Virus record (IMG/VR): IMGVR_UViG_3300044974_000389 | Coordinates: 1 to 30,628 of that record | DNA length: 30,628 nucleotides | Source: a virus | Direction: 5' to 3' (one strand) | In this document: one piece after another, positions 1 to 20,139 of the stretch | Position numbering within the stretch: position 1 is the stretch's first letter | How the letters are laid out: each line of letters starts with the position of its first letter | The notes under the pieces: generated by a model | The model's input: the letters and a program-made list of their open reading frames with translations, nothing else | What the model was told of the DNA's origin: nothing | Database searches by the model: none | Program-made: the position numbers and the translations under genes

Positions 1-125
1 AATTCAGCGTCTATCAATTTCTCCAGACCTCCATTGTAAAGCATATCCATGTACTGCTCAAAGGTTTTCTCCTCCGCAGCAGTAGCGCCTGGCATTTTTA
101 TAGTTACCTTACAGGGTTTCGCCAT
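1..125 (-). CDS. N-terminal fragment of an unidentified small protein, cut by the window edge
   Basis: A minus-strand frame starts at the ATG whose complement lies at 123-125 and stays open to the edge of the window, giving 41 codons. The start overlaps the TAA of the ferritin-like gene (TAATG), the same coupling used elsewhere in this cluster, which supports it as a real gene. The visible part begins MAKPCKVTIKMPGATAAEE and continues into an acidic, probably helical stretch containing YMDMLYNGGLEKLID. I recognise no family, and the C terminus is missing. Confidence 0.6.
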   Translation of the reverse strand, partial: MAKPCKVTIKMPGATAAEEKTFEQYMDMLYNGGLEKLIDAE

Positions 126-616
126 TAGAACAGTTTTTCTTCGAGAAGCAATAACTTGAACTTATCCTTTCCGTCTACATCCTCAAGCAGGTTTAGCTTG
201 TCGCTGTATTCCGCAACAGACTTGGTCTGTATCAATCGGAACTGCTGCAAGAAGTCAAACGTGCAAAGGTCCATGTTGAAGAGTTTCTTAGACGTTTCTT
301 CATACGCCTCGTACAAATCGTATTCGATCTTGTATGCCTCTTCCAACACCTCGAGAAGTCCGGAGAAGTCTACCTGCGGCTTGGGTACGGTAGGAAGCGG
401 AACAGTGATATTCCAGTCTACCAAATACTTTTCAATCTTAGCCGCGTGTTCAAGTTCGTCCTGAGACTCAGCAGCAAAGAAAGCTGCGGCCTTGAAATAT
501 CCAACACCCTGACACCAGTTGCTGGCGGCACGATAGAAGTAAAACGCATCCATCTCGTCCAAATGACGTGGGGCTAATAGGTCTACTACACCTTTATCTA
601 AACTATGAGGTTTCAT
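125..616 (-). CDS. Ferritin-like four-helix protein with an incomplete ferroxidase centre
   Basis: This 163-residue protein aligns by eye with bacterial non-haem ferritin (FtnA, about 165 residues) over most of its length. Shared landmarks are the helix A ending in NWC, the GYFKAAAFF segment, the SQDELEHA helix B motif and the CTFDFLQQF start of helix D. Iron site A ligands appear kept as E21, E54 and H57, and the helix C glutamate of site B as E98. Helix D reads QTKSVAEY where FtnA has EQHEEEKLF, so the FtnA E126 and E130 equivalents are Ile and Ser. Ferritins oxidise Fe2+ and store ferric mineral; with site B damaged, this one may bind iron or protein without full ferroxidase activity. It starts 7 bases after the giant gene ends, so it is probably co-transcribed with virion genes and may be a virion component. 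Fold assignment is fairly secure, function is not. Confidence 0.75.
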   Translation of the reverse strand: MKPHSLDKGVVDLLAPRHLDEMDAFYFYRAASNWCQGVGYFKAAAFFAAESQDELEHAAKIEKYLVDWNITVPLPTVPKPQVDFSGLLEVLEEAYKIEYDLYEAYEETSKKLFNMDLCTFDFLQQFRLIQTKSVAEYSDKLNLLEDVDGKDKFKLLLLEEKLF

Positions 617-622
617 GTTTTA

Positions 623-3600
623 TTACGGGCAACCGTCAGTTTTATTTGTTATCACACCCGCTTCTTGCAGGCGCTTATTAATCTTTGGAATATTGTCGTA
701 AATATACTTCAACTTTGGGTCACGACCCAAAATTTCATCAATAGCGTCCCTTGCTCCAGGTGTTTTATCCTTGAGTTTATAGTAGTTGTCAACCAACTCG
801 CTTATGCTTGCTTTGACCCCGGATGGCTTCTCTGCCTTTGGAGTCTCAGTTTTTGACTCAACCTTAGGCTGTGCCTTGGGAGTAGCCCCAAATTCATCTT
901 GCAGAATCTCGTCAAATTGCTCTTTAAGCTTAGAGGTTAGCCCATTGTACCAATCTTGACTACTAACGATATTATTTACAGCAGTCTGAGGATCAGTGCC
1001 AGAGGCAATCGCTTGCTCAACAGCATCTGCCGCATTCTCCATCAAAGACTGAATCTCAGCATTTGTTCTTGGTGTAGGTTCACGCAGCTCATTGGGGATC
1101 GAGTTAGTTCCGTATTCGGCCTGGGTTTCGTTTAGCTTACCTTGATCGGCGTAAGACTCATAATAACCTTTAACGCCTTCACTGTCGCTATTGATAATTA
1201 CATAGTCAAGAACTTTAACATCAGCAGATTCCAAAGCATTCATCATTCGCTTAAAACCTGATGAAAATTGATCTTGATTTGAATAAAATATGATTCCAGT
1301 TCCGATTCCGGCCTCAGCAATGAATGATGTGGTCTCGTTGTAGTCAAACGCTTTCTTGAAAATGTAATTCCCTATGATTTCGTTCCTATTGTTCAGCAAT
1401 AACATTCCATGCTTTGGCAATGCTGTGAACCTTAACTGCATCAAGAACTGAGAAACATCCATTGAGTTGCTTATAGAACCCATAGGGCCGGACAGAATCT
1501 CTTGCTCGTCCATCATCTCAACCTTGAGCGCTTTATTGTATTCCTCTATGCTCTCTTTGGTTATATCTCTATTTTTAACAAAAGATATATCGTCTGGATA
1601 AAGGTGTACGTATTGCTTTTTATACGTATCCATGATTACGTGCTCAAGCTCGATCCCTAGAGGACTCAAAACATTATCAACTCTATTGGTGAGTTGTATA
1701 TCCGGTCTACTTGCCACTAACGATCCCGAAGGATGGTTGTGAACAAGGTAAACTTTCTTCGACTTGAATTTCTTTGCCCCAGCTAAAACAAGTCGAGGGT
1801 CCACGATTGTTGATGTAGGACCGCCCATGCCCAGGAACTGGATGTGGGCCTTTCCATTCTTATCAACGTGTACAGCGAAGGCGTGCTCAACAGCCTTGTC
1901 TTCAAGTTTACGCATGATGTGTGCTACATCTTCCGCATCCTTGACCTTGACACTTCCGTTAAACTTGATTTGCTTGTATTTGTTCCATACAGCCTTTACT
2001 GTATTACCGACTCCTCCCTCTCGTACACCCTGCCCCCGTACTCCACCACGTTCACTATACGGCATATTTCCGGTTTCGGATACAAACGGGCCGGCGGCTG
2101 TGTCTGTTCTTGTAAGTCCTTCGTTTGGTCCATCTGTTATTTTTTTATTTTCAATTAAATTTTCTACCGCCTTTACGAGTTCTGGGTTTGAACCGTCTTT
2201 TTTAGCCTTGTGGTAAAGCTCGGATATTAAATTTGCATTTATATCAGACAGGTTTGATTGATCAAAAACGATTACCTCCTGTCTTTGAGACGGTAATTTT
2301 AGACGAGTAAAATTATTCAAAAGACCATCATAGCCCATTCCCTCCAATGCTCTTCTGAACTGTTCATTTTCCTTTAATTCCTGAGGATAAGTCTTCCCGA
2401 CATAGGCCCCATTTAAAACCTCTTTAGGTATTATTGAAGTCCTTGTGCTTGATGATTTTCTCCACGCATCTATCAACCTGTCGTTAAGATCTTTTGTAAC
2501 AACAGTATCAATGTCAAAAAGATTAGATGTTTTTAAAGACAATTCTTTTAACACACCTTTGCCCTTCGTGTACATCTTGCCAATTATCTCGTTGGGCGAT
2601 ATGAATATGTCTTTTTTAGGCAGCTCTTCAACTGGCTGGCCTCTGAAATACTTTGTGGACTTTGTCTTTTCAAATAAGGGTTCCACATCTAATCCTTCCA
2701 ATGCCTTAGCTGTCTCTTCTATGGATGACAATGGAGATCCATAGCCTACTTCTTGCTCTTGAACTTTTATGGCCTTAGGATTTCTAACCGCGTAAACCAT
2801 TTCTCCAGCATTACCGGCGTCCTCTCCATATATCACATCAGCACTGTCAAACTCTTCTTTGAATTTATTAAACTCCTCAAGACCAATAGCTCGCTTCATC
2901 TTTCCAAACGTGCCTTCTCTGCCCCTGGTTGTGAAGTTCCTATCCTCATCAAACATACTTTGATCAATGGTAAGGAACGGTTGCCCCATGCCATTGTCTG
3001 GTATCCCGGCGTCCTTTAACTTTTTATTCCATTTAGCCAAGTCAAGGACCTTGTTTTTGGAGATGTTTGCCTTAATGATGTTTTTTCCAAATACCCCCGC
3101 ATACTTTTCGTTTTCAGCAAAGTATTGTACGCCGTTGTAATCTTGAACATATTCGCCCGGTAATCCCCTGTAGCCAACAGCTTCTTTTACATTTTGCCCT
3201 TCGTAACCTACTTTTTGTTCTTGAGCTTCTTGCGTAGTTCCTTCAAGTGGACTAATGCCATAACCGCCTTGTCTTCCTTGCTCAGGTTGTTCACGTTCAA
3301 CTTCTTGGTAGAATTTTTCATAATCCTCTATTGTTTTTACTTTTTCGTCTTCACTTAATGACTCATAATACTCAACGAGCTCATCTTCGCTTAGGTTGCC
3401 CAAATCATTGTTTCTGATGGCGTCTCTCATCTGCGACTCGTACTCGTACCTTGCCGCCTCGTCCATGTCATTAGTCAGCTTATCACGCATCTCGATGAGC
3501 TCGTCCTCCATTTGAGACTTGTTCTCAAAAGAAGCAAGCACGTCAAGAACTTCGTTGATAGCATCCTGTTCGTCGAACACAATTCCGCCAAGCTCTGGTA

Positions 3601-6600
3601 AATCTTCAAGGGCGATCAGATCCACGCTACGACCATTGTCAGAAATAAAACCCGCTCTTTTTGCGGCGGCTATTTCATCCTTACCGGCAAGTTCGGACTG
3701 GCTTGTCATCACCTTGCCGCCTCGCATGAAATAAAGAAGAACGCTTGCCCTTAGACCTAGCAATGAATCTTGGGCCATTGACTTGGCTTCTTTCAGTTTG
3801 TCGTTACGCTCCTTGTTAAACTTGCGGTCAACATCTCTTCTGGCTACGACTTTACCATTTTCCTTGCTTGTCAGACTGATGTTTCCGCCCTTTACGTTTA
3901 CAACAGCAAACCCAAGTCTTTCCGCCTCATCCTTGATCTGATTCAACAGATTACCACCCATTGGCTTTCTGCTTTTGGGTATCTTGTTGTATCGGTTTTT
4001 CTTAGTGATAAGCTCGTTTACCTGTTCGTTTACGCTTGGACCTTCCTCGACAGGGGCTTCTTCAGTTACAGTTTCCTCCGGAGTTACCTCGGCAACATCT
4101 TCTTCCTCCACTTCGGGCGCGAAATCCTTTGGTAAGAACCCTTCGTTGTTTTCCGGGTTCCAATCACTCGTTCTGCCGTCAGGCGATACTAACTTCCAAA
4201 CAGATTTGCTAGTGTCCTCAATGGTGTATTCTTCGTATCTACCATTGTAGTTTCGATACACTATGTCGCCTTTTCCAAAATTACTTAAACGCTTTCCGTC
4301 CTTCTCGCTTGTCCGGTTAAGCATACTATCGATTCTAAAAGCAAAGCTCGATGAGGCTCTATACGATTTGAATTTTTCAATTGAGTCAACAAATCCCTCT
4401 CCCATGTATTGAATCTCGTACTCAAGGAAATCAGCAACTTCCCTGGTGATTCCTTGCTCCTCAACCATCTTGTTAGCCGCATACTCATACCCATCCCCGA
4501 CTAGTGCATCAGGATTGTTCTTGCTAAACGTGTTGTAGTAATCAAACATTTGTTTGAACAGCCCGTAACTCTTTTCGTAATTCAAAGGTGGTACAGCCTC
4601 GAATCCCTCGTATACATTTGCGAACTCTTCTATCCTGCCTTGCATGGCATTTTCAGTCAAGTTCTTTACTCTTGTGAAACCTTTTTTGCCAGGGCCTAAA
4701 ACTTGATAATGAGGAGCCCAATCGTTTTCCCCTTTAATTATTTGACCTACCTTAAATTGATCGGCGCTTTTAAACTTTTTATCCTCGACGGTAGCAGCGG
4801 CTGATGGCGCTGTTTCTTCTTTTTCTACAGTTGCCTGTACGGGTTTTGTTTCCGTAGGCTTTTCCTCCGCCTCAAACAACGAGGCTATCTTACCCTTGCG
4901 GGTTGGTTTTTCTTCTGTCGCTTTAGCACCAGGGAAGAAAACCACTTCTTGATTAGATTGATTTTTGTATTTGCGATCAATCAATCTAATCGTTTCGCCA
5001 TTCGGTGTTGTAACATCTACAAAGGACGAACTTGGAGTTGATTCGTACTTAACGGTATAGCCGTCGGCTTCGTAGGTGTTTACCTTCTGTTCTTTTCCGT
5101 CTACCTTTTCGTAATTAGGATTACCTCGCTTTTCATCAAAAGAAAAATTGCCCTCTTGTATTGCTTTTTTCTCTAGTGATTCAATTTCTTTTTGAAATAT
5201 GTTGACTTCATTTCTTGACAGAGCACCTTTAGCATTACCAATCAAGTCTTTTACTTTGTCTCTAAACTTATTTGCTACATACTCTATCTTGTCTCTTTGT
5301 TTTTTAGGTTCAGCCTTTTCCTCTCCTTTGAACAAACCTGCAAGACGTTCCTTACGGCTTGGCTTAGCAGGCTCGGTCTTTTCAGGCAGGGCTGCCGGCT
5401 TGACTTCTTCAAACTCAGTCTCTATTCCGCCAACATCTTTTCTTGATTGATCAAGAGACTTTCGGTATGATTCAAAGTCATATCCCGCAAGGCCGGCTGT
5501 AGCCTTCTCGTATTGCGCGGCAAGAGGTAATAACTTTTCAGGCAACTCTTCCGCGTCAACGATTTCCCCGGTCTTGTTGTCCGTGATGATTATCTCATTA
5601 TCGTAGTCCCAATCAATGGAATATCCATTGTTGCCAAACTCCATTTCAACATTAGCCATCTCATCTGTTATGGGCTTCATGTTGGCTTCGACTTCTTCCG
5701 GGGCGATCTCGGGAACTACTTCCTCTTGTGCTTGAAGAACTCCACTTGCTGGAGCCTCTTCTTTGCTTGGAGCTTCGACAGGTTTGGCTTCGACAGGTTC
5801 TTGCCCGACTCCGACTTCACCTGATACCCGGATTTGGTTTTCTTTATCATATTTTAATGAGTTTAGATTTTCAAGCAGTTGTTTTGAATTACCCTGCTGC
5901 CCCTCGCGTATCTGCAACGTCCTTCCATCCTCCGTAGTGATGTTTACCGATACTATCTTGCCGTTCTTCTCTGCGTAATTATTGAGAGTAGCGTTCTTGC
6001 CGGCGTAGTTGATCGTTGCACCCTTTTCAAGAGTAGGGGTAATAAGCGTGTTCTGATTCTCGATGTTCATCTCCCCGACGATTCCCTCGTCAGTCTCGAT
6101 GCCCATCTCACGGATCTTTTCAGCAACTCCCTCTCCCTTTTCAATGATAACGCTTCTTCCGTTGTTGTATTCTATCTCGTAATCACCGTCCTCGTTGATA
6201 AAGAAACTAGCATACTCGTCACCTACCTTTACTCGCTGAGGTGTAGTTGATGTGCCTACTGACTTAGCATCAATACCATTTTCACCAAGCATCAGGATCT
6301 CTTCGCGCTCGTTCTTCAATTTTTCGATCTGAGCGTTCGTGATAGGGTCTTTAAGACCGCCTTCCTCCAGAGTTCTTATCTGTTGGGTTATACCGAATGC
6401 CCGCGCTTGCTTGGGGCGTGGGAGGTTTTTCCAGTTGGGATGAGCCGACAAAGCTTGGAAGTCTTCGCGAGGACCTTTCAAGTCCTGCTTCACCTTAGCA
6501 ACGTCTGCGCTATTGGTTGATGCCGCGATTATGCCATCCGCATTTTCAGCGGCCTCAAGCATAACGTCTTCCGCAAAGTTGGAGGCTCCTACCGGTCTTC

Positions 6601-8875
6601 TAAAGAAATTACCCGCCTTACCACCTATCAAACCACTCAATGCGGCGTCCTTGTACCCACGGCCAGAATTTAAGTCCTTAAAGTATTCGGTTTCACCCAG
6701 GTAGTTGATAATCTCTTTGGTGGCATTATCAACCTTTTGTTGAGTAACTTCTTCGCCCGCTTCTTTCAATCCAGACTTGAGATATGATGCGGAAGATTCC
6801 GCAAAAGAATCCCTGAATGCTTGCGATAAACTTTTACCGTTTGCCAAATCATTCAGTACAGACTTCCTGAAAACGCTAGGCTCAAAGTATTTAACGTCAG
6901 GTATCAATCCTTCAGCCAATGACACGGCGATAGCGGTTGCTGTAGAAGCTGCCGCAGCTTGCCTTGGAGACATCTTGTGGGTATTGATGGCTTCCTCGTA
7001 TGCGTCAGCTTCTGTTACAAGCCATGACGTTGCGAACGTAGCCCCATACTGAGCCATCTTAGATGCCCCTGCAAACGTGCCGCCTAAGGCGAATGTGGCA
7101 AGTGAAGCCAGCGCGTTACCTCCTAGCGAGGTCAAGTATTGGATGTTTGATTCTGATTCAATCGTCGGGAAGTCTACCCTCTTTTCCATGCGGTAGTTTT
7201 CCAGTCCGTCATAAATCTCGTCAAGGAAGTTGTATTCCGTATTCCCGGTCACAAGGTCTTCCAATATCTTGGGTATCTCCAGGACATTGATGGCCATGTT
7301 TCCGATTCCAGCAGCAAACGTATTTGCAAGTTCGCCCGGGGCATATATCATTTTCATCATCGGAGAAGCGTTGTCCCACCTCTGCTTTCCAGCCTCCTGC
7401 TCCTTCTCGATTCGATCCTTTAATGTCTTGTATTCAGAATAGTAATTTATGTTGTCCTGGTTTAAAGCACCAAGCACCTTGAGTGATAAAGTAGACTGAC
7501 CAAGAGAGTTATACGCAGTCTTAGCCTGTTCCAACTTAGCCACGTTCTCGTCGGTCATTCTTGAACGAACCTTGAGGTCTTCGTAGTCGGATTGCAACTT
7601 ATTGCTGCGCTCTTGTAGCTTGCTGAAATCTGGGTAGTTCGCCTTGTATGCGTTGTATTCGTCCTTGTACTCTTGGCTGATTCTATTAAACTCAGCCTCG
7701 TAGTCCTCACGCTTCATGGTGGAGGACTTCGCATTCAGATCCTGGATAGCCTTATTAAATTCAGCGTCTCTTTGATTCCATGAAGCAAACGACTCCTTCG
7801 CCTTTTGCTCGAGTCTCTTGTATTCGGCATCTATAGCCGCACGCTCTTGATTCAACGCGATAACCCCGGCGTCAAACAGGCGGGAGTCAATTGAAGCCTC
7901 TATCTTAGAATATTCGTTGATGCCTGACTTTTGCTTGTCGTAGTTCCTCTTGATTGCGGCCATCTTCAACTGAATAGCCCTGGTCTCCATAGAGTTTAAC
8001 CACTCTTCGTTCTTGGCGCTTCTGTCTGTGCTTGACTTTAGTTGAGAGTATTTATTAAACTCAGCCTCACCTATTTCGGGTCTCGTCTTCTTCATGTAGT
8101 CGAAATAGTCGTCCATCAAAGCGGAAACCATCTCGCCTCTCTTGCCTTCTTTCTCGATGGTGGTTCCGTTGGGAACCTCTCTTTCGCCAAGAGCAATTTG
8201 AAGATCCGTTAAATCAGTCGGAGCAACAGTAAAGTATGGGAAAAACTTATCCGACTTGTTGCCGGCATTGTTCATGTAACTATCTATCTCCTCGCCAAAC
8301 TGAGCTTCGTATTCATTGGCTATCTTCTTATCTATATCCTCTTTGGACAGAATGTTTACACCCTGATCCTCAAGAGCTTTTTGACTTTTCTCAAACGCGG
8401 CCTGGTTGACCTTTTTAATAGCGTCCTCTGAGGTAAAATCAGTTCCTTTTTCTTTGGACACAGAAGCTACCGGGGATTGAATGAACTTGCCCTGCTCTGC
8501 TTTCTTCTCGACTTCTTTTACAGTCTTGATAGGCTGAGGAATCTGCGCCTGTGTTGTTTCAGACGGCATCTCCTCTCTACGAAACGTAATGTCTTGCTGC
8601 TTCTTTTGGGGCTCTTTCTTCACCCCTTTCATTACCGGCTCCCCGCTAACGAGGGTTTCGGTCATTACTTTCTGGCCAAAACTCGGCGCAGAAGGCTTTG
8701 TAGGCTGCTCTTGAGGCGAACCAGAAACGGGTTGCCCACCCCCTTTTTTTTTTAAACCAGAGATAAACGCATCGCGAAACTTGCGAAGGTCGTCTTTGCT
8801 TGCGCCAGTGCTTGCGTATTTAACAAGCCCTTTTTTCAGTTTTTCCTTTTCGTCCGGAGTTAATCCTACTGGCAT
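623..8875 (-). CDS. Giant multidomain (polyvalent) protein, probable ejected virion protein with ART-like and RadC/JAMM-like domains
   Basis: A 2750-residue protein. Residues 1-100 are basic, then Pro/Gln-rich. Roughly 290-500 is charged and probably coiled coil. Ala/Gly-rich hydrophobic segments near 512-540, 578-630 and 638-665 could insert in membrane. Small beta-rich units joined by Glu/Pro/Ala linkers fill about 850-1650, followed by charged helices to 1880. Next come two ADP-ribosyltransferase-like modules: YRG at R1903 with GEMVYAV at E2025, and YFRG at R2078 with GYDG (2181-2184) and QEVIVFD at E2200. A RadC/JAMM-like domain has E2330, H2379, H2381 and D2392, an exact H-x-H-x10-D. A second domain of the same outline (about 2486-2560) has YSNQDQ where the metal ligands should be. 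The gene sits where T7 has gene 16, last of the ejection proteins, so packaging and injection is my inference. An alternative is a non-virion antidefence polyvalent protein. No lytic transglycosylase or RNA polymerase motif was seen. Confidence 0.7.
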   Translation of the reverse strand: MPVGLTPDEKEKLKKGLVKYASTGASKDDLRKFRDAFISGLKKKGGGQPVSGSPQEQPTKPSAPSFGQKVMTETLVSGEPVMKGVKKEPQKKQQDITFRREEMPSETTQAQIPQPIKTVKEVEKKAEQGKFIQSPVASVSKEKGTDFTSEDAIKKVNQAAFEKSQKALEDQGVNILSKEDIDKKIANEYEAQFGEEIDSYMNNAGNKSDKFFPYFTVAPTDLTDLQIALGEREVPNGTTIEKEGKRGEMVSALMDDYFDYMKKTRPEIGEAEFNKYSQLKSSTDRSAKNEEWLNSMETRAIQLKMAAIKRNYDKQKSGINEYSKIEASIDSRLFDAGVIALNQERAAIDAEYKRLEQKAKESFASWNQRDAEFNKAIQDLNAKSSTMKREDYEAEFNRISQEYKDEYNAYKANYPDFSKLQERSNKLQSDYEDLKVRSRMTDENVAKLEQAKTAYNSLGQSTLSLKVLGALNQDNINYYSEYKTLKDRIEKEQEAGKQRWDNASPMMKMIYAPGELANTFAAGIGNMAINVLEIPKILEDLVTGNTEYNFLDEIYDGLENYRMEKRVDFPTIESESNIQYLTSLGGNALASLATFALGGTFAGASKMAQYGATFATSWLVTEADAYEEAINTHKMSPRQAAAASTATAIAVSLAEGLIPDVKYFEPSVFRKSVLNDLANGKSLSQAFRDSFAESSASYLKSGLKEAGEEVTQQKVDNATKEIINYLGETEYFKDLNSGRGYKDAALSGLIGGKAGNFFRRPVGASNFAEDVMLEAAENADGIIAASTNSADVAKVKQDLKGPREDFQALSAHPNWKNLPRPKQARAFGITQQIRTLEEGGLKDPITNAQIEKLKNEREEILMLGENGIDAKSVGTSTTPQRVKVGDEYASFFINEDGDYEIEYNNGRSVIIEKGEGVAEKIREMGIETDEGIVGEMNIENQNTLITPTLEKGATINYAGKNATLNNYAEKNGKIVSVNITTEDGRTLQIREGQQGNSKQLLENLNSLKYDKENQIRVSGEVGVGQEPVEAKPVEAPSKEEAPASGVLQAQEEVVPEIAPEEVEANMKPITDEMANVEMEFGNNGYSIDWDYDNEIIITDNKTGEIVDAEELPEKLLPLAAQYEKATAGLAGYDFESYRKSLDQSRKDVGGIETEFEEVKPAALPEKTEPAKPSRKERLAGLFKGEEKAEPKKQRDKIEYVANKFRDKVKDLIGNAKGALSRNEVNIFQKEIESLEKKAIQEGNFSFDEKRGNPNYEKVDGKEQKVNTYEADGYTVKYESTPSSSFVDVTTPNGETIRLIDRKYKNQSNQEVVFFPGAKATEEKPTRKGKIASLFEAEEKPTETKPVQATVEKEETAPSAAATVEDKKFKSADQFKVGQIIKGENDWAPHYQVLGPGKKGFTRVKNLTENAMQGRIEEFANVYEGFEAVPPLNYEKSYGLFKQMFDYYNTFSKNNPDALVGDGYEYAANKMVEEQGITREVADFLEYEIQYMGEGFVDSIEKFKSYRASSSFAFRIDSMLNRTSEKDGKRLSNFGKGDIVYRNYNGRYEEYTIEDTSKSVWKLVSPDGRTSDWNPENNEGFLPKDFAPEVEEEDVAEVTPEETVTEEAPVEEGPSVNEQVNELITKKNRYNKIPKSRKPMGGNLLNQIKDEAERLGFAVVNVKGGNISLTSKENGKVVARRDVDRKFNKERNDKLKEAKSMAQDSLLGLRASVLLYFMRGGKVMTSQSELAGKDEIAAAKRAGFISDNGRSVDLIALEDLPELGGIVFDEQDAINEVLDVLASFENKSQMEDELIEMRDKLTNDMDEAARYEYESQMRDAIRNNDLGNLSEDELVEYYESLSEDEKVKTIEDYEKFYQEVEREQPEQGRQGGYGISPLEGTTQEAQEQKVGYEGQNVKEAVGYRGLPGEYVQDYNGVQYFAENEKYAGVFGKNIIKANISKNKVLDLAKWNKKLKDAGIPDNGMGQPFLTIDQSMFDEDRNFTTRGREGTFGKMKRAIGLEEFNKFKEEFDSADVIYGEDAGNAGEMVYAVRNPKAIKVQEQEVGYGSPLSSIEETAKALEGLDVEPLFEKTKSTKYFRGQPVEELPKKDIFISPNEIIGKMYTKGKGVLKELSLKTSNLFDIDTVVTKDLNDRLIDAWRKSSSTRTSIIPKEVLNGAYVGKTYPQELKENEQFRRALEGMGYDGLLNNFTRLKLPSQRQEVIVFDQSNLSDINANLISELYHKAKKDGSNPELVKAVENLIENKKITDGPNEGLTRTDTAAGPFVSETGNMPYSERGGVRGQGVREGGVGNTVKAVWNKYKQIKFNGSVKVKDAEDVAHIMRKLEDKAVEHAFAVHVDKNGKAHIQFLGMGGPTSTIVDPRLVLAGAKKFKSKKVYLVHNHPSGSLVASRPDIQLTNRVDNVLSPLGIELEHVIMDTYKKQYVHLYPDDISFVKNRDITKESIEEYNKALKVEMMDEQEILSGPMGSISNSMDVSQFLMQLRFTALPKHGMLLLNNRNEIIGNYIFKKAFDYNETTSFIAEAGIGTGIIFYSNQDQFSSGFKRMMNALESADVKVLDYVIINSDSEGVKGYYESYADQGKLNETQAEYGTNSIPNELREPTPRTNAEIQSLMENAADAVEQAIASGTDPQTAVNNIVSSQDWYNGLTSKLKEQFDEILQDEFGATPKAQPKVESKTETPKAEKPSGVKASISELVDNYYKLKDKTPGARDAIDEILGRDPKLKYIYDNIPKINKRLQEAGVITNKTDGCP
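8739..8753 (-). other. A10-G5 homopolymer run near the start of the giant gene
   Basis: On the coding strand TTT is followed by ten A and five G (codons TTA AAA AAA AAA GGG, about residues 40-45). It contains T-TTA-AAA-like and A-AAA-AAG heptamers that favour -1 slippage. A -1 shift would terminate after about 32 further codons, giving a product of about 76 residues; +1 also ends within about 30 codons. It may cause real slippage or just sequencing error; the long uninterrupted frame supports the reading as given. Confidence 0.5.
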
Positions 8876-8878
8876 ATC

Positions 8879-10198
8879 TTACTGATTATTATAAAGTTCG
8901 TTGAGAATTTCATTAGCCGCGTCTTGCGGTGATTGCGTTGATCCACTTGAAGATCCAGACGAGTCGGATGAGCCTAGCCCATTTCTTGTTTCAAATTCTA
9001 TTCTAGGGTCAAATCCGTCAAGATATGATTTAAACTTAGGCTTATTGTCTTCGTAGCTAACCCAGATTTCTTGTGGCTTTCCGGTTCCTTCATCTTTAAC
9101 AGGATCACCCTGATTGTCGAGCTCATATCCTATTACACTAACGTCTCCGTTTTGAGCGTAATAAAAACCGATCGGTTGGAAAACAGGTATGTTTCTGTAA
9201 CCGTTCGTGCTTCCCCCAGCAACACCTTGAAGCGGCTCTAGCTCTTGGTTGTTTTTAGTAATAGCCATTCTATTATAACCTGGCGCAAAATACTCGACAG
9301 GAGCCCCTTCCTCAACTTCAATTGATAAATTACCCCATTTACCCGTTCCGTATTTTGGAACATCATCCTTTTTAGGAGCGCGAGAACTACTTTTTGTAAC
9401 CGGCTTAGGCTTGCCTGGGTTCATGTCTTTAAACATGGACGTAGCCTCTTCGTACAACTTTGCTGGGTCGTTTGCGTACCTTGTTATTAGTGCTTCATAA
9501 TCTTTCGCGCCAACCTGGTCTTTAAAGTATATACCCAATAGGTTCTTGAACTTTTCGGGATCTTTCTTAATCATGGTTCTTCCGTTAACCTTGATCTCTT
9601 CCTCGTCCATGAGCTCGTCTATCTTCTCGACTACATCAACCAGTTCTACATTCTTTCTGTAAATACTATTTGCCTGAGCATAGCTTAATCTTTCTTCCGG
9701 AGTAATGTCAGGGTTCATAAACTGTTGCCCCCATGTTGCCGCGTAACCGGTATCCCATTCGTCGGGGTTTTTGCTTACATCATCCCGTCCTTTCTCCCAG
9801 ATTTTAGCATTCATCTTAGCCGCGTTTGTTTGCTTTTTGATTTCGCGGGTCATTTCATTAATCCTCTTTCTCTGATCTGTCGATAGGTTTCTTGGGTCTA
9901 CCTTAGGATCATTCATCAAGCCATGAATATACTCGTTATACTCCGTTACCTTTTCCTGAATCTTGGGAAGGTCTATGTTCCATACGTCTGGGTCTTCCAT
10001 AAGAAAGTCATCCCAAGCCTTTACTTTGTCTTGCTGGTTTTTCTTTCTTTCGGCTTCGTATGATCGGATATCCTCAAGACCTTGATTGACTATGTTCAAG
10101 GTTTCGCCTAATCCCTCCGAATATGCTGCACCACGATTTGAGCCTGGCATATCCCCGGCTGCCCCTGTATAAACTATTGCTGCGCTTGGTACTCCCAT
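8879..10198 (-). CDS. Helical virion protein, candidate internal core/ejection protein (T7 gp15 position)
   Basis: This 439-residue protein has no motif that I recognise. Residues about 35-250 are dominated by charged amphipathic helices and contain many Asp, Glu and Lys. A Lys/Pro/Ser-rich linker follows (around 265-285), then a region of short beta strands and Gly turns (about 290-400). The C terminus is a Ser/Gly-rich tail, including SSDSSGSSSGSTQ, ending in a short helix. It lies 3 bases upstream of the giant gene and 11 bases downstream of the 205-residue protein. By position it matches T7 gene 15, although T7 gp15 is longer (747 residues) and no sequence similarity is claimed. The ATG at 10196-10198 is the first in frame after the preceding stop. 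Role as an internal virion protein is inferred from context. Confidence 0.55.
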   Translation of the reverse strand: MGVPSAAIVYTGAAGDMPGSNRGAAYSEGLGETLNIVNQGLEDIRSYEAERKKNQQDKVKAWDDFLMEDPDVWNIDLPKIQEKVTEYNEYIHGLMNDPKVDPRNLSTDQRKRINEMTREIKKQTNAAKMNAKIWEKGRDDVSKNPDEWDTGYAATWGQQFMNPDITPEERLSYAQANSIYRKNVELVDVVEKIDELMDEEEIKVNGRTMIKKDPEKFKNLLGIYFKDQVGAKDYEALITRYANDPAKLYEEATSMFKDMNPGKPKPVTKSSSRAPKKDDVPKYGTGKWGNLSIEVEEGAPVEYFAPGYNRMAITKNNQELEPLQGVAGGSTNGYRNIPVFQPIGFYYAQNGDVSVIGYELDNQGDPVKDEGTGKPQEIWVSYEDNKPKFKSYLDGFDPRIEFETRNGLGSSDSSGSSSGSTQSPQDAANEILNELYNNQ

Positions 10199-10209
10199 CT
10201 CAATTGTTT

Positions 10210-10827
10210 TTATGATGGGATTGAATAATCCCCAATATTGCTATATCCTCCTGCTGCGGAACCAAACTGACCGCCTACTCTTGCGGCATTGGCAAATGCG
10301 TCAAACGTGTTGTTGGATTCCTGGTATCTCTTTTCGCGTAATGCTGAAATAGCGGCAGATGTTCTAAGGAATGGATTGAGCTGATTCTGCGTGTACATCT
10401 CGTCTCTATACCCGCCAATCTGTGCTGATAAGTTAGTCAAGCCCTGCATCTTATTTTTTTCAGCCTCTCTTTGATAGTCTGCTGCGGTTTGGGCAAGGTT
10501 TAATCCACCCATCATTCTTTGTGCGCCTAATGTAGTTGTGGCGGCCATAATATCAGATGAGCCTTGAGCCCCTTGGCTAATTGCGCCTAATGTTTGACCA
10601 ATAGACATATCCATTCCGTACTCAGCGGCCTTCCGCCCGGGCATATCAGTTCTCTGGCCTAGCTGCCTGTTGTATGTGGCCATGAGTTCTTGTGGAAGCT
10701 CGTACTTGGGCTCCTTGAGTCCTGCTTCAAGTTTTTTAATCTCCTTCTTTGCTCGATTGGCACGAATAGCACTTTGGACACCTTTTCCAACCGCTATTCC
10801 ACCTGCTACTGCTAATATTACCGGCAT
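10210..10827 (-). CDS. Ala/Gly-rich small virion protein, candidate ejection protein (T7 gp14 position)
   Basis: A 205-residue protein whose first 20 residues form a small-residue hydrophobic segment (ILAVAGGIAVGKGVQSAI), followed by a basic helix (RANRAKKEIKKLEAGLK) and long Ala/Gln/Met-rich helices to about residue 175. The C terminus is Gly/Ser-rich. Low cysteine content, many small residues and one N-terminal hydrophobic helix are usual for podoviral internal proteins that reach the host membrane. T7 gp14, in the same place between the tail tube and the two large core proteins, has 196 residues. The start overlaps the GNAT-like gene by 10 bases. I infer a role in the ejection channel; sequence homology to gp14 cannot be shown by eye. 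Confidence 0.55.
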   Translation of the reverse strand: MPVILAVAGGIAVGKGVQSAIRANRAKKEIKKLEAGLKEPKYELPQELMATYNRQLGQRTDMPGRKAAEYGMDMSIGQTLGAISQGAQGSSDIMAATTTLGAQRMMGGLNLAQTAADYQREAEKNKMQGLTNLSAQIGGYRDEMYTQNQLNPFLRTSAAISALREKRYQESNNTFDAFANAARVGGQFGSAAGGYSNIGDYSIPS

Positions 10828-11252
10828 GACTTATATCTTAGTTTAACAACATTGTCTAAATTACAATCCTCCCTTTCCATCCCGCACTTCTCAAACCACC
10901 TTATCGCTCTCTCGTTTCTTTCCCACATATAGGTCACGAAACTATCCCCCATCCATTTTTTTATATCGTCAAATAAAGATGTCAAAAAATCTTTATTCCT
11001 AAACTCTTTGTTGACGCCAAAACTAACAAGCACATCTGAAAAGTAATATACAAATCCAACCTCCCTGTCTCCAACCTTCAAAACCTCAAATGCACCATCC
11101 ACCATCTCCTCGTACACCAGCAGCTTCTCGTGTGCGTCGATACTCACGCTTTCCGGCGTGGGCCTCTCGTTGCTAGGATCACAGTATTTGCTTATATCGT
11201 GATCCCCATCAAAAGCTGCATAAATAGCACTGTAGGATATTTTAGTATCCAT
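10818..11252 (-). CDS. GNAT-fold acetyltransferase-like protein in the virion gene cluster
   Basis: A 144-residue protein. Its second half reads like a degenerate GNAT fold: a beta strand (DVLVSFGVNKEF) leads into FRNKDFLTSLFDDIKKWM where the acetyl-CoA loop and helix normally lie, then SFVTYMWERNERAIRWFEKCGME, matching the GNAT strand-plus-helix in which an Asn precedes a helix ending F-x-x-x-G. The usual Q/R-x-x-G-x-G/A pyrophosphate loop is poor, so activity is uncertain. I chose the ATG at 11250-11252; an upstream in-frame TTG (11259-11261) would add three residues. It sits between the muzzle gene and the small ejection-protein candidate, where T7 has gene 13 (138 residues), and GNAT-like genes are known at that position in some T7-like phages. 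It may therefore be a virion-assembly protein rather than a metabolic enzyme. Confidence 0.65.
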   Translation of the reverse strand: MDTKISYSAIYAAFDGDHDISKYCDPSNERPTPESVSIDAHEKLLVYEEMVDGAFEVLKVGDREVGFVYYFSDVLVSFGVNKEFRNKDFLTSLFDDIKKWMGDSFVTYMWERNERAIRWFEKCGMEREDCNLDNVVKLRYKSCR

Positions 11253-11263
11253 TAGTGGCAAAT

Positions 11264-16979: not shown

Positions 16980-17731
16980 ACTTTACTTGGCATTTGAGTC
17001 TGAATGTTCCATTGGTTTTCGTTACCAATACCGATGTAAGTCTTAATCATATCAGTTAGGTGGTCCACACAGCTTTCTGGGTATTCAAATTCAACGCTAA
17101 GACTAGGAGTGCCGGCAGGTAGCACTGTGTTATTCGTATGAACAGTGCCTGGTGGTAAATATACGGGAATCCCGTTCACAATGTCATAGTCAAATACAGG
17201 CTGAATAGGCTCTCGTATGTAAGTAAAGGTTATCCGTGGCATATACGGATAAATGAAATACTTGTCATTTCTTGTAACAAGTATTGGATCATTTTCTTCA
17301 GGATTGTCTACTGGGCTTATTATCGAGTTACGCATCTTGGCGTCAAACTCATGCTGGCTGACAAACTCTACACTTCGGTAGTTGGTCTCGTATGAACATT
17401 CCTTATTCAGTATCTCAAGAAAACTTGCAGTTGCCTGATACCAAATATCGACAGGAATATCCGCGTAACCTCCGCGCTCTGGACGTCCTGCCAAAACAGG
17501 AGTAAACGACATTGCGGGGTACTGAGGAGAACCTAGTGTCTTGATAAATGTTTGTAGGTCACTGGTAATTTCTCGGTTCTTCTCAAAATTGTCTACGAGC
17601 GTGTTTAGGTATCGCTGGTTTACAATGTTAATCGCACGATTGAAATCGTCGGGCGTGATGTAGCCACCCCTCAGGTCTTTGCCAGCCCTGAAGAGAAGCT
17701 CATCATATATTTGTCCGAGGTTAGTAGTCAT
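16976..17731 (-). CDS. Head-to-tail connector (ring/stabilisation) protein
   Basis: A 251-residue protein with an N-terminal helical bundle (about residues 1-70, including QIYDELLFRAGKDL and DDFNRAINIVNQRYLNTLVD), a central beta-rich part with many Pro/Tyr turns (about 75-215), and a C-terminal helix (SCVDHLTDMIKTYIGIGNE). The N-terminal pattern resembles P22 gp4 and other tail-accessory or completion proteins, which have helices that contact the portal and a beta domain facing the tail. Its start codon overlaps the stop of the fibre-like gene (TAATG) and it is coupled by ATGA to the next ring gene. Three successive proteins of this type before the muzzle match a stacked-ring collar. The specific ring number is not determinable here. 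Confidence 0.6.
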   Translation of the reverse strand: MTTNLGQIYDELLFRAGKDLRGGYITPDDFNRAINIVNQRYLNTLVDNFEKNREITSDLQTFIKTLGSPQYPAMSFTPVLAGRPERGGYADIPVDIWYQATASFLEILNKECSYETNYRSVEFVSQHEFDAKMRNSIISPVDNPEENDPILVTRNDKYFIYPYMPRITFTYIREPIQPVFDYDIVNGIPVYLPPGTVHTNNTVLPAGTPSLSVEFEYPESCVDHLTDMIKTYIGIGNENQWNIQTQMPSKV

Positions 17732-20139
17732 TATTGGTAAATTCTAACTTCTATACAAGCATTTGTCAAAACTTGATCGTCTAATGTCAAGGTGTCCGCA
17801 AACTTAGTTTCTATAACGATGCGTCCGGCTTGAACTCTAGCAACAACGCAGGGCGTGCGAGTAGGCAGAACAATATCCCCATTAGAAATCAAAACCATAG
17901 TTTTTGTTGTACTAAAACTAACTCCGGAAGTTATATCGTAGTTTCCAACTCCGTTTCTGTTGGGAGTCATTGTCAAACCTGTATCATTGTATATCTCAGT
18001 AAGAACAGGATCTGCTGTACCAGTCTGATTTATCAATGCTACGTAGGTAGTAAATGCAGCAGGAGTTGCCACCTTTTGTACAAGTCCGGTGCTGTTTACG
18101 CCTAGCATATACGTAACAGCCCCTTCTTGGTTTGTGCCATCGTATTCGTTAAGGGTTACTGAACCGTCCGCATTCAATGTAAAGCCGACATTCTCTGTTC
18201 CAGCATTCTTTGTGGTTATCTGAAAATTAGAGCTTTGCGTTGAAGCGTTGGTCCATGTGCTTCTAATGTTAGAAGTCGAAACTGGTGATCCAGCTGCTGT
18301 TTCTGCCGCAAACTGGATTGAACTTCCTATTCCGTTTGCACCAGCACCTGCGCTATTGGTTGTTGTAAGAATAGCGTTTATGCCTACACTCGTGCCTGGT
18401 TGATTTACATTTAGCAACAAAGGAACGCCACCGGTAGCTATAACTTCCAAAGTCGAATCATCACTTTCTATAATGAAGTCATTTCCATTGACGTTTATTG
18501 TGGTGTCTGTATCAAGTGTTCCGCCCAATTGAACGTCATTTGCTACCTCTGTCAAACCGTTAGAGGCGCTTACTATGGCGTCTGCCTGAATAGTAGCAAC
18601 GTCCGTCTGTAGAGTTAAAACATCACCTAATACAGAAGTAAACAACGCATCAGCTTGACTTAGCTGTCCTTGCACATCGCCGGCTGTTAAATTAGTGCCG
18701 CCTACCGCCGAAACATCAGCCGCAGCAACTACTTCTTGATAATCGTAAAATTCCACCCATGTGGCGCTGCCAGGCGTATTGTTGGTGCAGATATAAATAA
18801 CCCCAGTAGTGGTATTTTCCCACAAAGCACCTACCTCAACACCTTGTGCCGAACTTGGAACTACGCCGTCTATAACTGGAGATCCGGGGCCTGCCGGATC
18901 AAGAGTGAATAGTCTAAATTGAAAAGATGCAATTATACTGTCTATCACAGAAGTAGCCGAATTGTTCGATACCCAGTAATAGGTGTTTTCATCACAACAA
19001 GCGCATTCACATCCTGACGCATCAAGGTTAGCCTTTATTAGAGCAAGAGCAGCTTTGTAATTATCTGTTTCTCCGCAAGACCTGTAGTTCTGAGCTTCCG
19101 CATAATACAGAAGAACATTGTCTACATATACTTGATATTTTGAAATCCTGTTTCTAACAAGTTCCGACTGATGGGCTACGCGAAGACTTTCAATGCAAGG
19201 TGTGAGACCGCAAAGACTGCCAGCACAACTTACAACAAATTCTTTGCTTACGGAAGTAGTGTACAAAAGAATCAATCCATCCGTCTGTGTTTGCTGTATC
19301 TGTTGAGATAAAGAAACGGTATACGTTCCTGTCGCAAGAGGATTTAATTGAGTTACTAGGTTTGGATAAGGCAAAGCTGTTGTCACTACATTTCCGGGGA
19401 AAGTAGGACTAAGTGTTGCCCAGCCTGGGTAGTTAATGGTACAGCTTAAAGACGACACCACCTCATTTGAAGCGAGTACCGTTGTGTTAGCCGCTGCCCA
19501 AGATCCGCTATCTCCATATTCGCAATCGTAAGTAAAGCTTACGTCTGCGGTGGTTTGAGTGCATCCGGAATAAGTAAACGTACCACTAAACTGCAAATTT
19601 GTTAAATCAAACCTCAGGTTTGTGTAAGCGCCAGAAGGTATAGCGTCAGAGGTTGTAATAGTTATGTTTGGATCAAGAAACACAGCAGAAGCAACCTCAA
19701 CAAAGACAGCCGGCGCTCCAACAAGAAGTTCTATATCATTCGTCGGCTCTAAGAAGTTGGCCAACCAAGATTCTGTGGTTACAATTGAAATTGTGTTTGC
19801 AGTGGGAATTGCAGCAATATCAAATGGTATTAACTCCGTGTCTAATCGAAGACTGTATTGAAATGTGTATACGCCATTTGCTACGTTTCCATCTACATCA
19901 AGCTCCAGGGGGAAGGTAAAAACCTGGGGATTGCTCCCCAAGTTTTCAAAATCTATCATAGGATTGAGGATTGTATTTCTATCCTCAACTATATCACCAT
20001 TAAAAGAAATCACACCCAATCCCTTGGCTCTAGCGAGAACAAGGTCTATGCCTAATGCAGCATAGTCTGTTGTGTCTGTTACTATACCCGTTGGCGGCGA
20101 AGCCGTTAGATCAAACGCAAGGGTTACGGTGCTAATCAT
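17731..20139 (-). CDS. Fibre-like virion protein with an internal cysteine cluster
   Basis: An 802-residue, Thr/Ser/Asn/Val-rich protein. Residues 1-300 look like beta-sandwich repeats (many TY-SC, TVS and TIN strands). A helix-rich segment with clustered cysteines follows: C305, C310, C315, one near 356, then C-x-C-x-C-C at 377-382. A short phage-fibre hinge around 425-455 contains GALWENTTTGVIYICTNN, a motif style common in fibre stems. A helical stalk (about 470-520, LSQADALFTSVLGDVLTLQT) and repetitive beta regions with NVNGNDF and GGTLDTDT turns extend to about 680. The C terminus (about 690-802, containing ALINQTGTADPVL) resembles receptor-binding or fibre-tip beta domains in phages of Flavobacteriia, as I recall them. 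It precedes the connector genes, so it may be a head or collar fibre rather than a tail-tip fibre. Host-recognition role is inferred. Confidence 0.6.
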   Translation of the reverse strand: MISTVTLAFDLTASPPTGIVTDTTDYAALGIDLVLARAKGLGVISFNGDIVEDRNTILNPMIDFENLGSNPQVFTFPLELDVDGNVANGVYTFQYSLRLDTELIPFDIAAIPTANTISIVTTESWLANFLEPTNDIELLVGAPAVFVEVASAVFLDPNITITTSDAIPSGAYTNLRFDLTNLQFSGTFTYSGCTQTTADVSFTYDCEYGDSGSWAAANTTVLASNEVVSSLSCTINYPGWATLSPTFPGNVVTTALPYPNLVTQLNPLATGTYTVSLSQQIQQTQTDGLILLYTTSVSKEFVVSCAGSLCGLTPCIESLRVAHQSELVRNRISKYQVYVDNVLLYYAEAQNYRSCGETDNYKAALALIKANLDASGCECACCDENTYYWVSNNSATSVIDSIIASFQFRLFTLDPAGPGSPVIDGVVPSSAQGVEVGALWENTTTGVIYICTNNTPGSATWVEFYDYQEVVAAADVSAVGGTNLTAGDVQGQLSQADALFTSVLGDVLTLQTDVATIQADAIVSASNGLTEVANDVQLGGTLDTDTTINVNGNDFIIESDDSTLEVIATGGVPLLLNVNQPGTSVGINAILTTTNSAGAGANGIGSSIQFAAETAAGSPVSTSNIRSTWTNASTQSSNFQITTKNAGTENVGFTLNADGSVTLNEYDGTNQEGAVTYMLGVNSTGLVQKVATPAAFTTYVALINQTGTADPVLTEIYNDTGLTMTPNRNGVGNYDITSGVSFSTTKTMVLISNGDIVLPTRTPCVVARVQAGRIVIETKFADTLTLDDQVLTNACIEVRIYQ

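What the first reader, a model, noticed from the sequence alone, without database searches (positions are those of the whole stretch)
623..8875. A 2750-residue probable ejected protein carrying several host-directed effector domains
Seen: N-terminal hydrophobic Ala/Gly-rich segments, long linkers, then two ART-like modules, an intact RadC/JAMM-like domain and a degenerate copy of it, in one open frame located where T7 encodes its last ejection protein. Known: T4 packages the ADP-ribosyltransferase Alt and N4 packages a giant RNA polymerase; polyvalent proteins in phages and plasmids combine such enzymatic domains. Inference: the phage may inject a bundle of protein-modifying enzymes to reprogramme the host or blunt its defences in the first minutes of infection.
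Basis: partly seen in the sequence, partly recalled or inferred. Interest (0 to 1): 0.85.

Follow-up and report, generated by a model that had tools for sequence, protein, structure and literature searches.

The report
Phage giant ejection protein, swappable cargo
An uncultured phage, probably of Bacteroidota, encodes a 2,750-residue protein in the place where short-tailed phages keep a protein they inject into bacteria; its ends are shared with relatives while its enzyme-bearing middle is swapped from phage to phage, so it looks like an exchangeable payload carrier, though nobody has yet shown that it is in the virion.

Summary
The ORF is real: 2,750 aa, minus strand (8875 to 623), last of a podovirus virion cluster. 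One domain is certain: RadC/JAMM (res. 2312-2416; Pfam 1.2e-19; fold match 2qlc, Z 15.6), motif intact. A degenerate second copy is weakly supported. The two ART-like modules are plausible but unproven; L002, 87% identical, has an ART-PolyVal relative in the same slot. Comparing 19 related proteins changes the picture: an N-terminal chassis with hydrophobic segments, exchangeable middle modules (zincin motif, SprT-like, GNAT, LPD23, RadC) and a conserved C-terminal tail. In some genomes chassis and cargo are separate genes, and the tail is on the cargo gene. Short DNA islands at module borders stay about 80% identical while modules change. A two-part 'clasp' brackets ART2 and also unrelated cargo in giants of other phages. 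Positional equivalents in cultured relatives are annotated as structural proteins, by MS/MS in phi18:3. Best reading: an ejected polyvalent effector carrier; virion location, activities and targets are inferred. RadC in a phage-type polyvalent protein departs from the published survey. New variant of a known kind.

The parts
623..8875 (-). giant gene, 2,750 aa, ATG start
   Evidence: relatives
5726..8875 (-). chassis, residues 1-1050; conserved (77% and 98% over residues 51-1050) in the two closest full-length relatives; a separate gene (1,159-1,846 aa) in some genomes
8665..8710 (-). conserved DNA island 1 (gene nt 166-211, peptide PSAPSFGQK)
7274..7330 (-). hydrophobic segment 1, residues 516-534
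7070..7126 (-). hydrophobic segment 2, residues 584-602
6902..6958 (-). hydrophobic segment 3, residues 640-658
5716..5850 (-). conserved DNA island 2, chassis-cargo junction (gene nt 3026-3160, VGVGQEP...GVLQAQ)
5348..5683 (-). exchangeable module, residues 1065-1176, also in L089, L091, L093 in other contexts
5324..5365 (-). border motif KPSRKERLAGLF, residue 1171
4868..4909 (-). border motif KPTRKGKIASLF, residue 1323
3266..4036 (-). exchangeable module, residues 1614-1870, function unknown, 42-57% identical in L089, L091, L093
2756..3193 (-). ART-like module 1, residues about 1895-2040; replaced in L002 by an ART-PolyVal relative
   Evidence: not confirmed by fold
2690..2728 (-). clasp, N half (SSIEETAKALE, residues 2050-2062)
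2240..2668 (-). ART-like module 2, residues about 2070-2212, lying inside the clasp
   Evidence: not confirmed by fold
2153..2227 (-). clasp, C half (YHKAKKDGSNPELVKAVENLI region, residues 2217-2241)
1628..1951 (-). RadC/JAMM domain, residues 2309-2416, motif intact
1106..1483 (-). degenerate RadC-like copy, residues about 2465-2590, HxHP lost (YSNQ)
   Evidence: weak; negative
626..1069 (-). conserved C-terminal tail, residues 2603-2750 (ends KTDGCP); last 171 nt are DNA island 3
8879..10198 (-). 439-aa neighbour, upstream in the same cluster, in the gp15 position
10210..10827 (-). 205-aa gp14-like protein with N-terminal hydrophobic segment; weak profile match to MS-detected phi18:3 gp120

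Best explanation
The gene encodes the giant internal-virion (ejection) protein of an uncultured podovirus, probably of Bacteroidota. It is a carrier of exchangeable cargo. Residues 1-1050 are the chassis, with three hydrophobic Ala/Gly segments, expected to be packaged with the gp14-like 205-aa and the 439-aa neighbours and to help cross the envelope. Residues about 1060-2600 are cargo: here modules of unknown function, two ART-like modules and a RadC/JAMM metalloenzyme domain with a degenerate partner copy. The last about 150 residues are a constant tail that travels with the cargo, most simply a signal for incorporation into the virion or for docking to the chassis. On infection the protein would be extruded into the host, where cargo modifies host molecules or blocks defence. 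SHOWN here: modular exchange, constant tail, chassis/cargo split in nature, RadC fold and motif, virion gene cluster. INFERRED: packaging, ejection, enzyme activity, targets and the role of the tail.
For: Gene order TerL, portal, scaffold-like, capsid-like, tail genes, gp14-like, 439 aa, giant. Positional equivalents: phi18:3 gp123 1,935 aa, noted as found by MS/MS; elemoA 3,667 aa 'structural protein' with DUF3293; Gundel_1 2,482 aa 'structural protein' with a weak GNAT-like stretch. Module exchange: window against L002 is 96% identical in DNA over gene nt 1-3567, then broken, with residues about 1900-2250 replaced; against L003 the whole of about 1060-2600 is replaced; against L013 the tail genes are 85-94% identical in protein while the giants share little beyond their ends. 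The RadC pair sits in L086 behind a 30%-identical chassis, with RadC1 91% identical. Chassis and cargo are separate genes in G006, G017, G018 and G030, with the tail on the cargo gene. Hydrophobic segments are in the chassis and absent from the L091 cargo gene and from four of the five L095-L099 cargo genes. Cargo families in relatives: RadC, SprT-like, DUF6782, GNAT, Pribosyltran, LPD23, ART-PolyVal in clasp-bearing phages and a relative of it in L002.
Against: No virion proteomics exist for this phage. The chassis profile finds no relationship to phi18:3, elemo, Gundel or T7 ejection proteins. No transglycosylase or lysozyme domain was found. The ART modules are unproven. The zincin motif seen in many relatives, thought to cut polyvalent proteins apart, is missing from this protein.
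Confidence: 0.66

Rival explanations
1. A virion protein, but the middle is not effector cargo: the modules are structural spacers or degenerate enzymes that determine packing or channel length, and the exchange is ordinary phage mosaicism.
For: The second RadC copy has lost its motif; the ART modules cannot be confirmed; other virion genes of the cluster also vary (the 802-aa protein is 34-38% identical where its neighbours are 75-97%).
Against: The RadC1 catalytic motif is intact and its surroundings nearly invariant in three relatives; relatives carry known enzyme families in the exchangeable region; cargo-only genes exist.
Confidence: 0.2
2. A late-expressed protein that is not ejected: an adhesin or tail-fibre-like protein, or an intracellular effector made late in infection, with constant ends and a variable middle driven by host range or competition between phages.
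For: Constant ends with a variable middle also describe tail fibres; there is no direct virion evidence for this phage.
Against: The variable modules recognised are intracellular enzyme types, not binding or sugar-active domains; hydrophobic chassis segments; MS-supported virion protein in the same position in phi18:3.
Confidence: 0.12
3. RadC acts during assembly rather than in the new host: the JAMM domain with its degenerate partner processes the giant or other virion proteins, taking the place of the missing zincin protease.
For: Window and L002 carry RadC and lack the HEGIH zincin that many relatives have; JAMM domains are peptidases elsewhere (AMSH, Rpn11 among fold matches).
Against: L086 carries both HEGIH and RadC; Iyer et al. 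2017 (PMC5512222) argue that RadC domains lack the ubiquitin-tail groove and favour a nucleic-acid or nucleotide substrate.
Confidence: 0.12

Closest known systems
Phage-type polyvalent proteins (Iyer et al. 2017, PMC5512222)
   Same: Large multidomain protein among virion genes; relatives carry LPD23, SprT-like, GNAT and zincin motifs, and clasp-bearing giants carry ART-PolyVal and LPD38.
   Different: [quoted passage not shown] Constant chassis and tail around swapped cargo, the natural chassis/cargo split and the clasp were not described in the passages read.
T7 gp14/gp15/gp16 ejection proteins
   Same: Giant is the last gene of an internal-virion-like cluster, preceded by a small protein with an N-terminal hydrophobic segment.
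   Different: No detectable sequence homology, no transglycosylase domain found, much larger, enzyme-like cargo.
Cellulophaga phage phi18:3 gp123 and equivalents (Pachyviridae, elemoviruses)
   Same: Same gene position; portal and terminase are homologous; gp123 found in virions by MS/MS.
   Different: Giants are not detectably homologous; Pfam finds no RadC in them.
Crassvirus cargo proteins gp45-gp50 (Bayfield et al. 2023, PMC10172136)
   Same: Large proteins stored in a Bacteroidota phage virion; ejection with partial unfolding proposed.
   Different: Cargo there is presumed channel proteins and RNA polymerase; no constant-tail, swappable cargo described in the passages read.
Phage T4 Alt and N4 virion RNA polymerase
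   Same: Enzymes packaged in the head and injected.
   Different: Dedicated enzymes, not exchangeable bundles (own knowledge, and PMC5512222).

Membership tests
RadC/JAB (PF04002) | profile match above curated cut-off | tested here: met
   70.8 bits against cut-off 22.1, residues 2312-2416
RadC/JAB (PF04002) | Glu plus HxHP...SxxD metal site | tested here: met
   E2330, H2379, H2381, S2389, D2392
RadC/JAB (PF04002) | RadC fold | tested here: met
   2qlc Z 15.6, rmsd 2.7, 121 residues; Foldseek 2.6e-8; local pLDDT about 50-80
RadC/JAB, second copy | profile match above cut-off | tested here: not met
   16.7 and 15.2 bits against 22.1
RadC/JAB, second copy | fold | tested here: inconclusive
   same element order, pLDDT about 55, not reached by the fold matches
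ART-PolyVal (PF18760), window modules 1 and 2 | profile match | tested here: not met
   no PF18760 match in the window record at E 1; by contrast L002's module matches phage members of the family at 98%
ART superfamily, window modules | ART fold | tested here: inconclusive
   single-sequence model with pLDDT 38
Phage-type polyvalent protein | two or more disparate enzymatic domains in one chain | tested here: inconclusive
   window: only RadC is certain; several relatives carry further families
Phage-type polyvalent protein | encoded among virion (late) genes | tested here: met
Phage-type polyvalent protein | packaged in the virion and injected | not testable with these tools
   needs virion proteomics
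T7 gp16-type ejection protein | sequence homology | tested here: inconclusive
   no match of the chassis profile to T7 gp16
T7 gp16-type ejection protein | last internal-virion gene behind gp14- and gp15-like genes | tested here: inconclusive
   order seen; 205-aa protein resembles phi18:3 gp120, hhalign 89.8% over 40 columns, but not T7 gp14; the 439-aa protein has no match

The most novel reading that the evidence does not exclude
These phages run a cargo-exchange platform inside the ejection machinery: a constant C-terminal tail acts as the virion-loading signal, short conserved DNA islands and the two-part clasp act as exchange points, and effector cassettes (RadC pair, ARTs, zincins, ParB-like domains) are swapped between phages, on one fused chain or as a separate cargo gene.
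Probability: 0.4. Interest if true: 0.8.

Novelty: new variant of a known kind. Interest (0 to 1): 0.62.

Why it matters
If true, it gives a family of phages in which ejected effectors are readable as cassettes: the constant parts tell where to look and the variable parts list what phages deliver in the first minutes of infection. It extends RadC to a phage-type polyvalent protein and offers a testable candidate loading signal for podovirus heads. The natural chassis/cargo split is an unusual handle for separating the channel role from the effector role.

Tried and rejected
ART fold by AlphaFold2: single sequence, pLDDT 38; the best Foldseek rows are unrelated and the few ART-fold rows have E above 2, so they were not used. 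No homologue of ART module 1 was found in viral contigs, phages, plasmids or held loci. RadC1 against RadC2 by profile and by shuffled pairwise alignment gave no signal. The idea that the downstream 986-1,168-aa genes carry a second copy of the C-terminal tail was dropped: the match is weak and mid-protein. Homology of the chassis to giants of cultured relatives: none detected. Host from bacterial genomes: the tail-gene search found no relative. Chance or annotation artefact for the ORF: rejected by conservation. Rfam and PADLOC searches were not run. A long hhalign batch timed out and was repeated in reduced form.

Full report
OBSERVATION. The finding's coordinates hold one open frame of 2,750 codons, but on the minus strand, from an ATG at 8875 to a stop at 623. 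The + strand of the same interval is full of stops. The record is a 30,628-base viral contig. Relatives at 87% (L002, 2,616 aa) and 69% (L003, 2,826 aa) and a 97% fragment (L004) exist in public viral contigs.

DOMAINS. Pfam gives one family above cut-off, RadC (PF04002), residues 2312-2416, E 1.2e-19; NCBIfam and PHROGs agree and PDB sequence search gives the Chlorobium RadC 2qlc. A two-sequence AlphaFold2 model of 2262-2600 (pLDDT 50 overall, about 50-80 in the first domain) matches 2qlc with Z 15.6, rmsd 2.7 over 121 residues. The metal-site residues E2330, H2379, H2381, S2389 and D2392 are in place. The second copy, about 2465-2590, keeps the order of strands and helices and reaches PF04002 only below cut-off, in complementary halves in two relatives; profile-profile and shuffle tests are negative. 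It lacks HxHP.

The two ART-like modules remain leads. Neither is matched by Pfam, by PF18760 in a one-record search, or convincingly by PDB. The single-sequence model has pLDDT 38 and no meaningful match. A custom profile of ART-PolyVal domains from other phages, found with PF18760 in G045, G047 and G048, scores ART1 at 8-11 bits, above all 200 shuffles in two of three versions, and ART2 at 9 bits in one version only. In L002 the slot of ART1 is filled by another module, and that one matches the same profile at 98% probability, E 9e-14. By eye both window modules show a YRG/FRG start and ART2 a QEVIVF end; this is a resemblance, not a test.

SETTING. Upstream lie terminase (phrog_6681), portal (phrog_6547), a scaffold-like protein, a capsid-like protein, tail genes, a 147-aa GNAT-like protein, a 205-aa protein with an N-terminal hydrophobic segment, and a 439-aa protein. 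Portal relatives are podoviruses of Flavobacteriia: Cellulophaga phi18:3 and its kin, and elemo phages; Gundel_1 of the same group has podovirus morphology (PMC8776804). In each, the gene at the equivalent position is a giant: phi18:3 gp123, 1,935 aa, noted as found by MS/MS; elemoA, 3,667 aa; Gundel_1, 2,482 aa. The elemo and Gundel labels may rest on similarity. The giants themselves are not detectably homologous to ours. The 205-aa family has a weak, co-linear profile match to phi18:3 gp120, which was found by MS/MS.

COMPARISON OF RELATIVES. A conserved 243-aa tail gene led to 48 contigs; 18 of 41 searched carry the C-terminal tail. Nineteen proteins were compared. Window and L002 are 96% identical in DNA over the first 3.57 kb, then alternate between similar and unrelated stretches. 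Window and L003 share chassis and tail; everything between is replaced. L013 has tail genes 85-94% identical in protein but a giant that shares mainly the two ends. The RadC pair recurs in L086 behind a 30%-identical chassis, with RadC1 91% identical. Against L086, L089, L091 and L013 the DNA matches reduce to short islands, chiefly gene nt 166-211, 3026-3160 and 8083-8253, at about 77-87%, plus any shared cassette (the last island is not found as DNA in L013). Border motifs recur in the giants and in no other ORF examined (the shuffle control ignores kinship).

CARGO. Across the family Pfam finds RadC (3 members), SprT-like, DUF6782, LPD23, GNAT, phosphoribosyltransferase and DUF7178; LPD23 passes its cut-off in two genomes. 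HEGIH zincin motifs are in 8 of the 19 and HEVTH/HEVSH-type motifs in five more; the window and L002 have neither. ParB-like sequence is suggested in L013. Iyer et al. [quoted passage not shown]

FISSION AND FUSION. In G006, G017, G018 and G030 the chassis is a gene of its own (1,159-1,846 aa) and the cargo another (1,183-1,603 aa) that begins MAKGCVYI and ends in the conserved tail. The chassis-only gene of L091 has no tail match, and the other three end in unrelated sequence. Hydrophobic segments lie in the chassis; the L091 cargo gene and four of the five L095-L099 cargo genes have none, L099 has one. The simplest reading is that the tail serves the cargo, for loading or docking. That is inference.

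CLASP. A search with the ART region returned 14 other contigs, matched mostly through a 25-residue piece, YHKAKKDGSNPELVKAVE. In those giants, and in L013, L092 and L099, it closes a segment that opens with a VESTAKALE-like motif; between the two lie ART-like, ParB-like or metallopeptidase-like sequence, or almost nothing. The motif occurs in 15 of 32 proteins against 0.23 expected in shuffles; every protein with the opening motif also has the closing piece. Eight of the 12 clasp contigs hold a phrog_6547 portal. No Pfam family matches the clasp in these proteins.

MECHANISM. Packaging in the head with the gp14-like neighbour, extrusion with partial unfolding as proposed for crassviruses (PMC10172136), refolding in the cytoplasm, and action of cargo on host molecules is the best-supported course of events. 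Shown: anatomy, exchange, RadC fold and motif. Inferred: every step in the cell. The substrate of RadC is open: peptide (as in other JAMM proteins) or nucleic acid (as Iyer et al. argue).

LIMITS. No host is known (negative); Bacteroidota is inferred from portal relatives. Structure predictions were limited to two jobs with almost no alignment depth. Conclusions on exchange rest on metagenome-derived contigs, but recur in many separate ones.

Noticed in passing
window 125-616 (-): Ferritin-like gene (PF00210, E 3.5e-19) directly after the giant, 97-99% identical in L002 and L003 although the giants differ; a 163-170-aa gene sits there in the relatives examined.
   Followed up: partly
window 10818-11261 (-): 147-aa GNAT-like protein with a TTG start inside the virion cluster, weak Pfam match; found in 12 of the related loci.
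   Followed up: no
window 17731-20139 (-): 802-aa protein that is only 34-38% identical to its equivalents while the adjacent tail genes are 75-97% identical: another fast-changing virion gene.
   Followed up: no
L102-L115: Two-part clasp around varied cargo in giants of other phage contigs; in L114 and L113 almost nothing lies between the halves, like an empty cassette.
   Followed up: partly
L085 8948-11908, L099 6627-10133: Gene after the ferritin-like gene has a mid-protein stretch weakly resembling the first half of the giant's C-terminal tail.
   Followed up: partly
L100 5176-7335 and 7238-7822 (-): Subtilase (PF00082, E 6.3e-36) with CARDB, and a CHAP-domain protein, further downstream in the L002 genome.
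   Followed up: no
L005 1363-1812: Tenacibaculum phage Gundel_1 carries a stand-alone JAB/RadC gene, the only cultured-phage match to the window's protein in the phage collection.
   Followed up: no
L107 and its contig G045: An open frame of 5,210 aa in a clasp-bearing phage contig, with a sub-threshold ART-PolyVal match.
   Followed up: no
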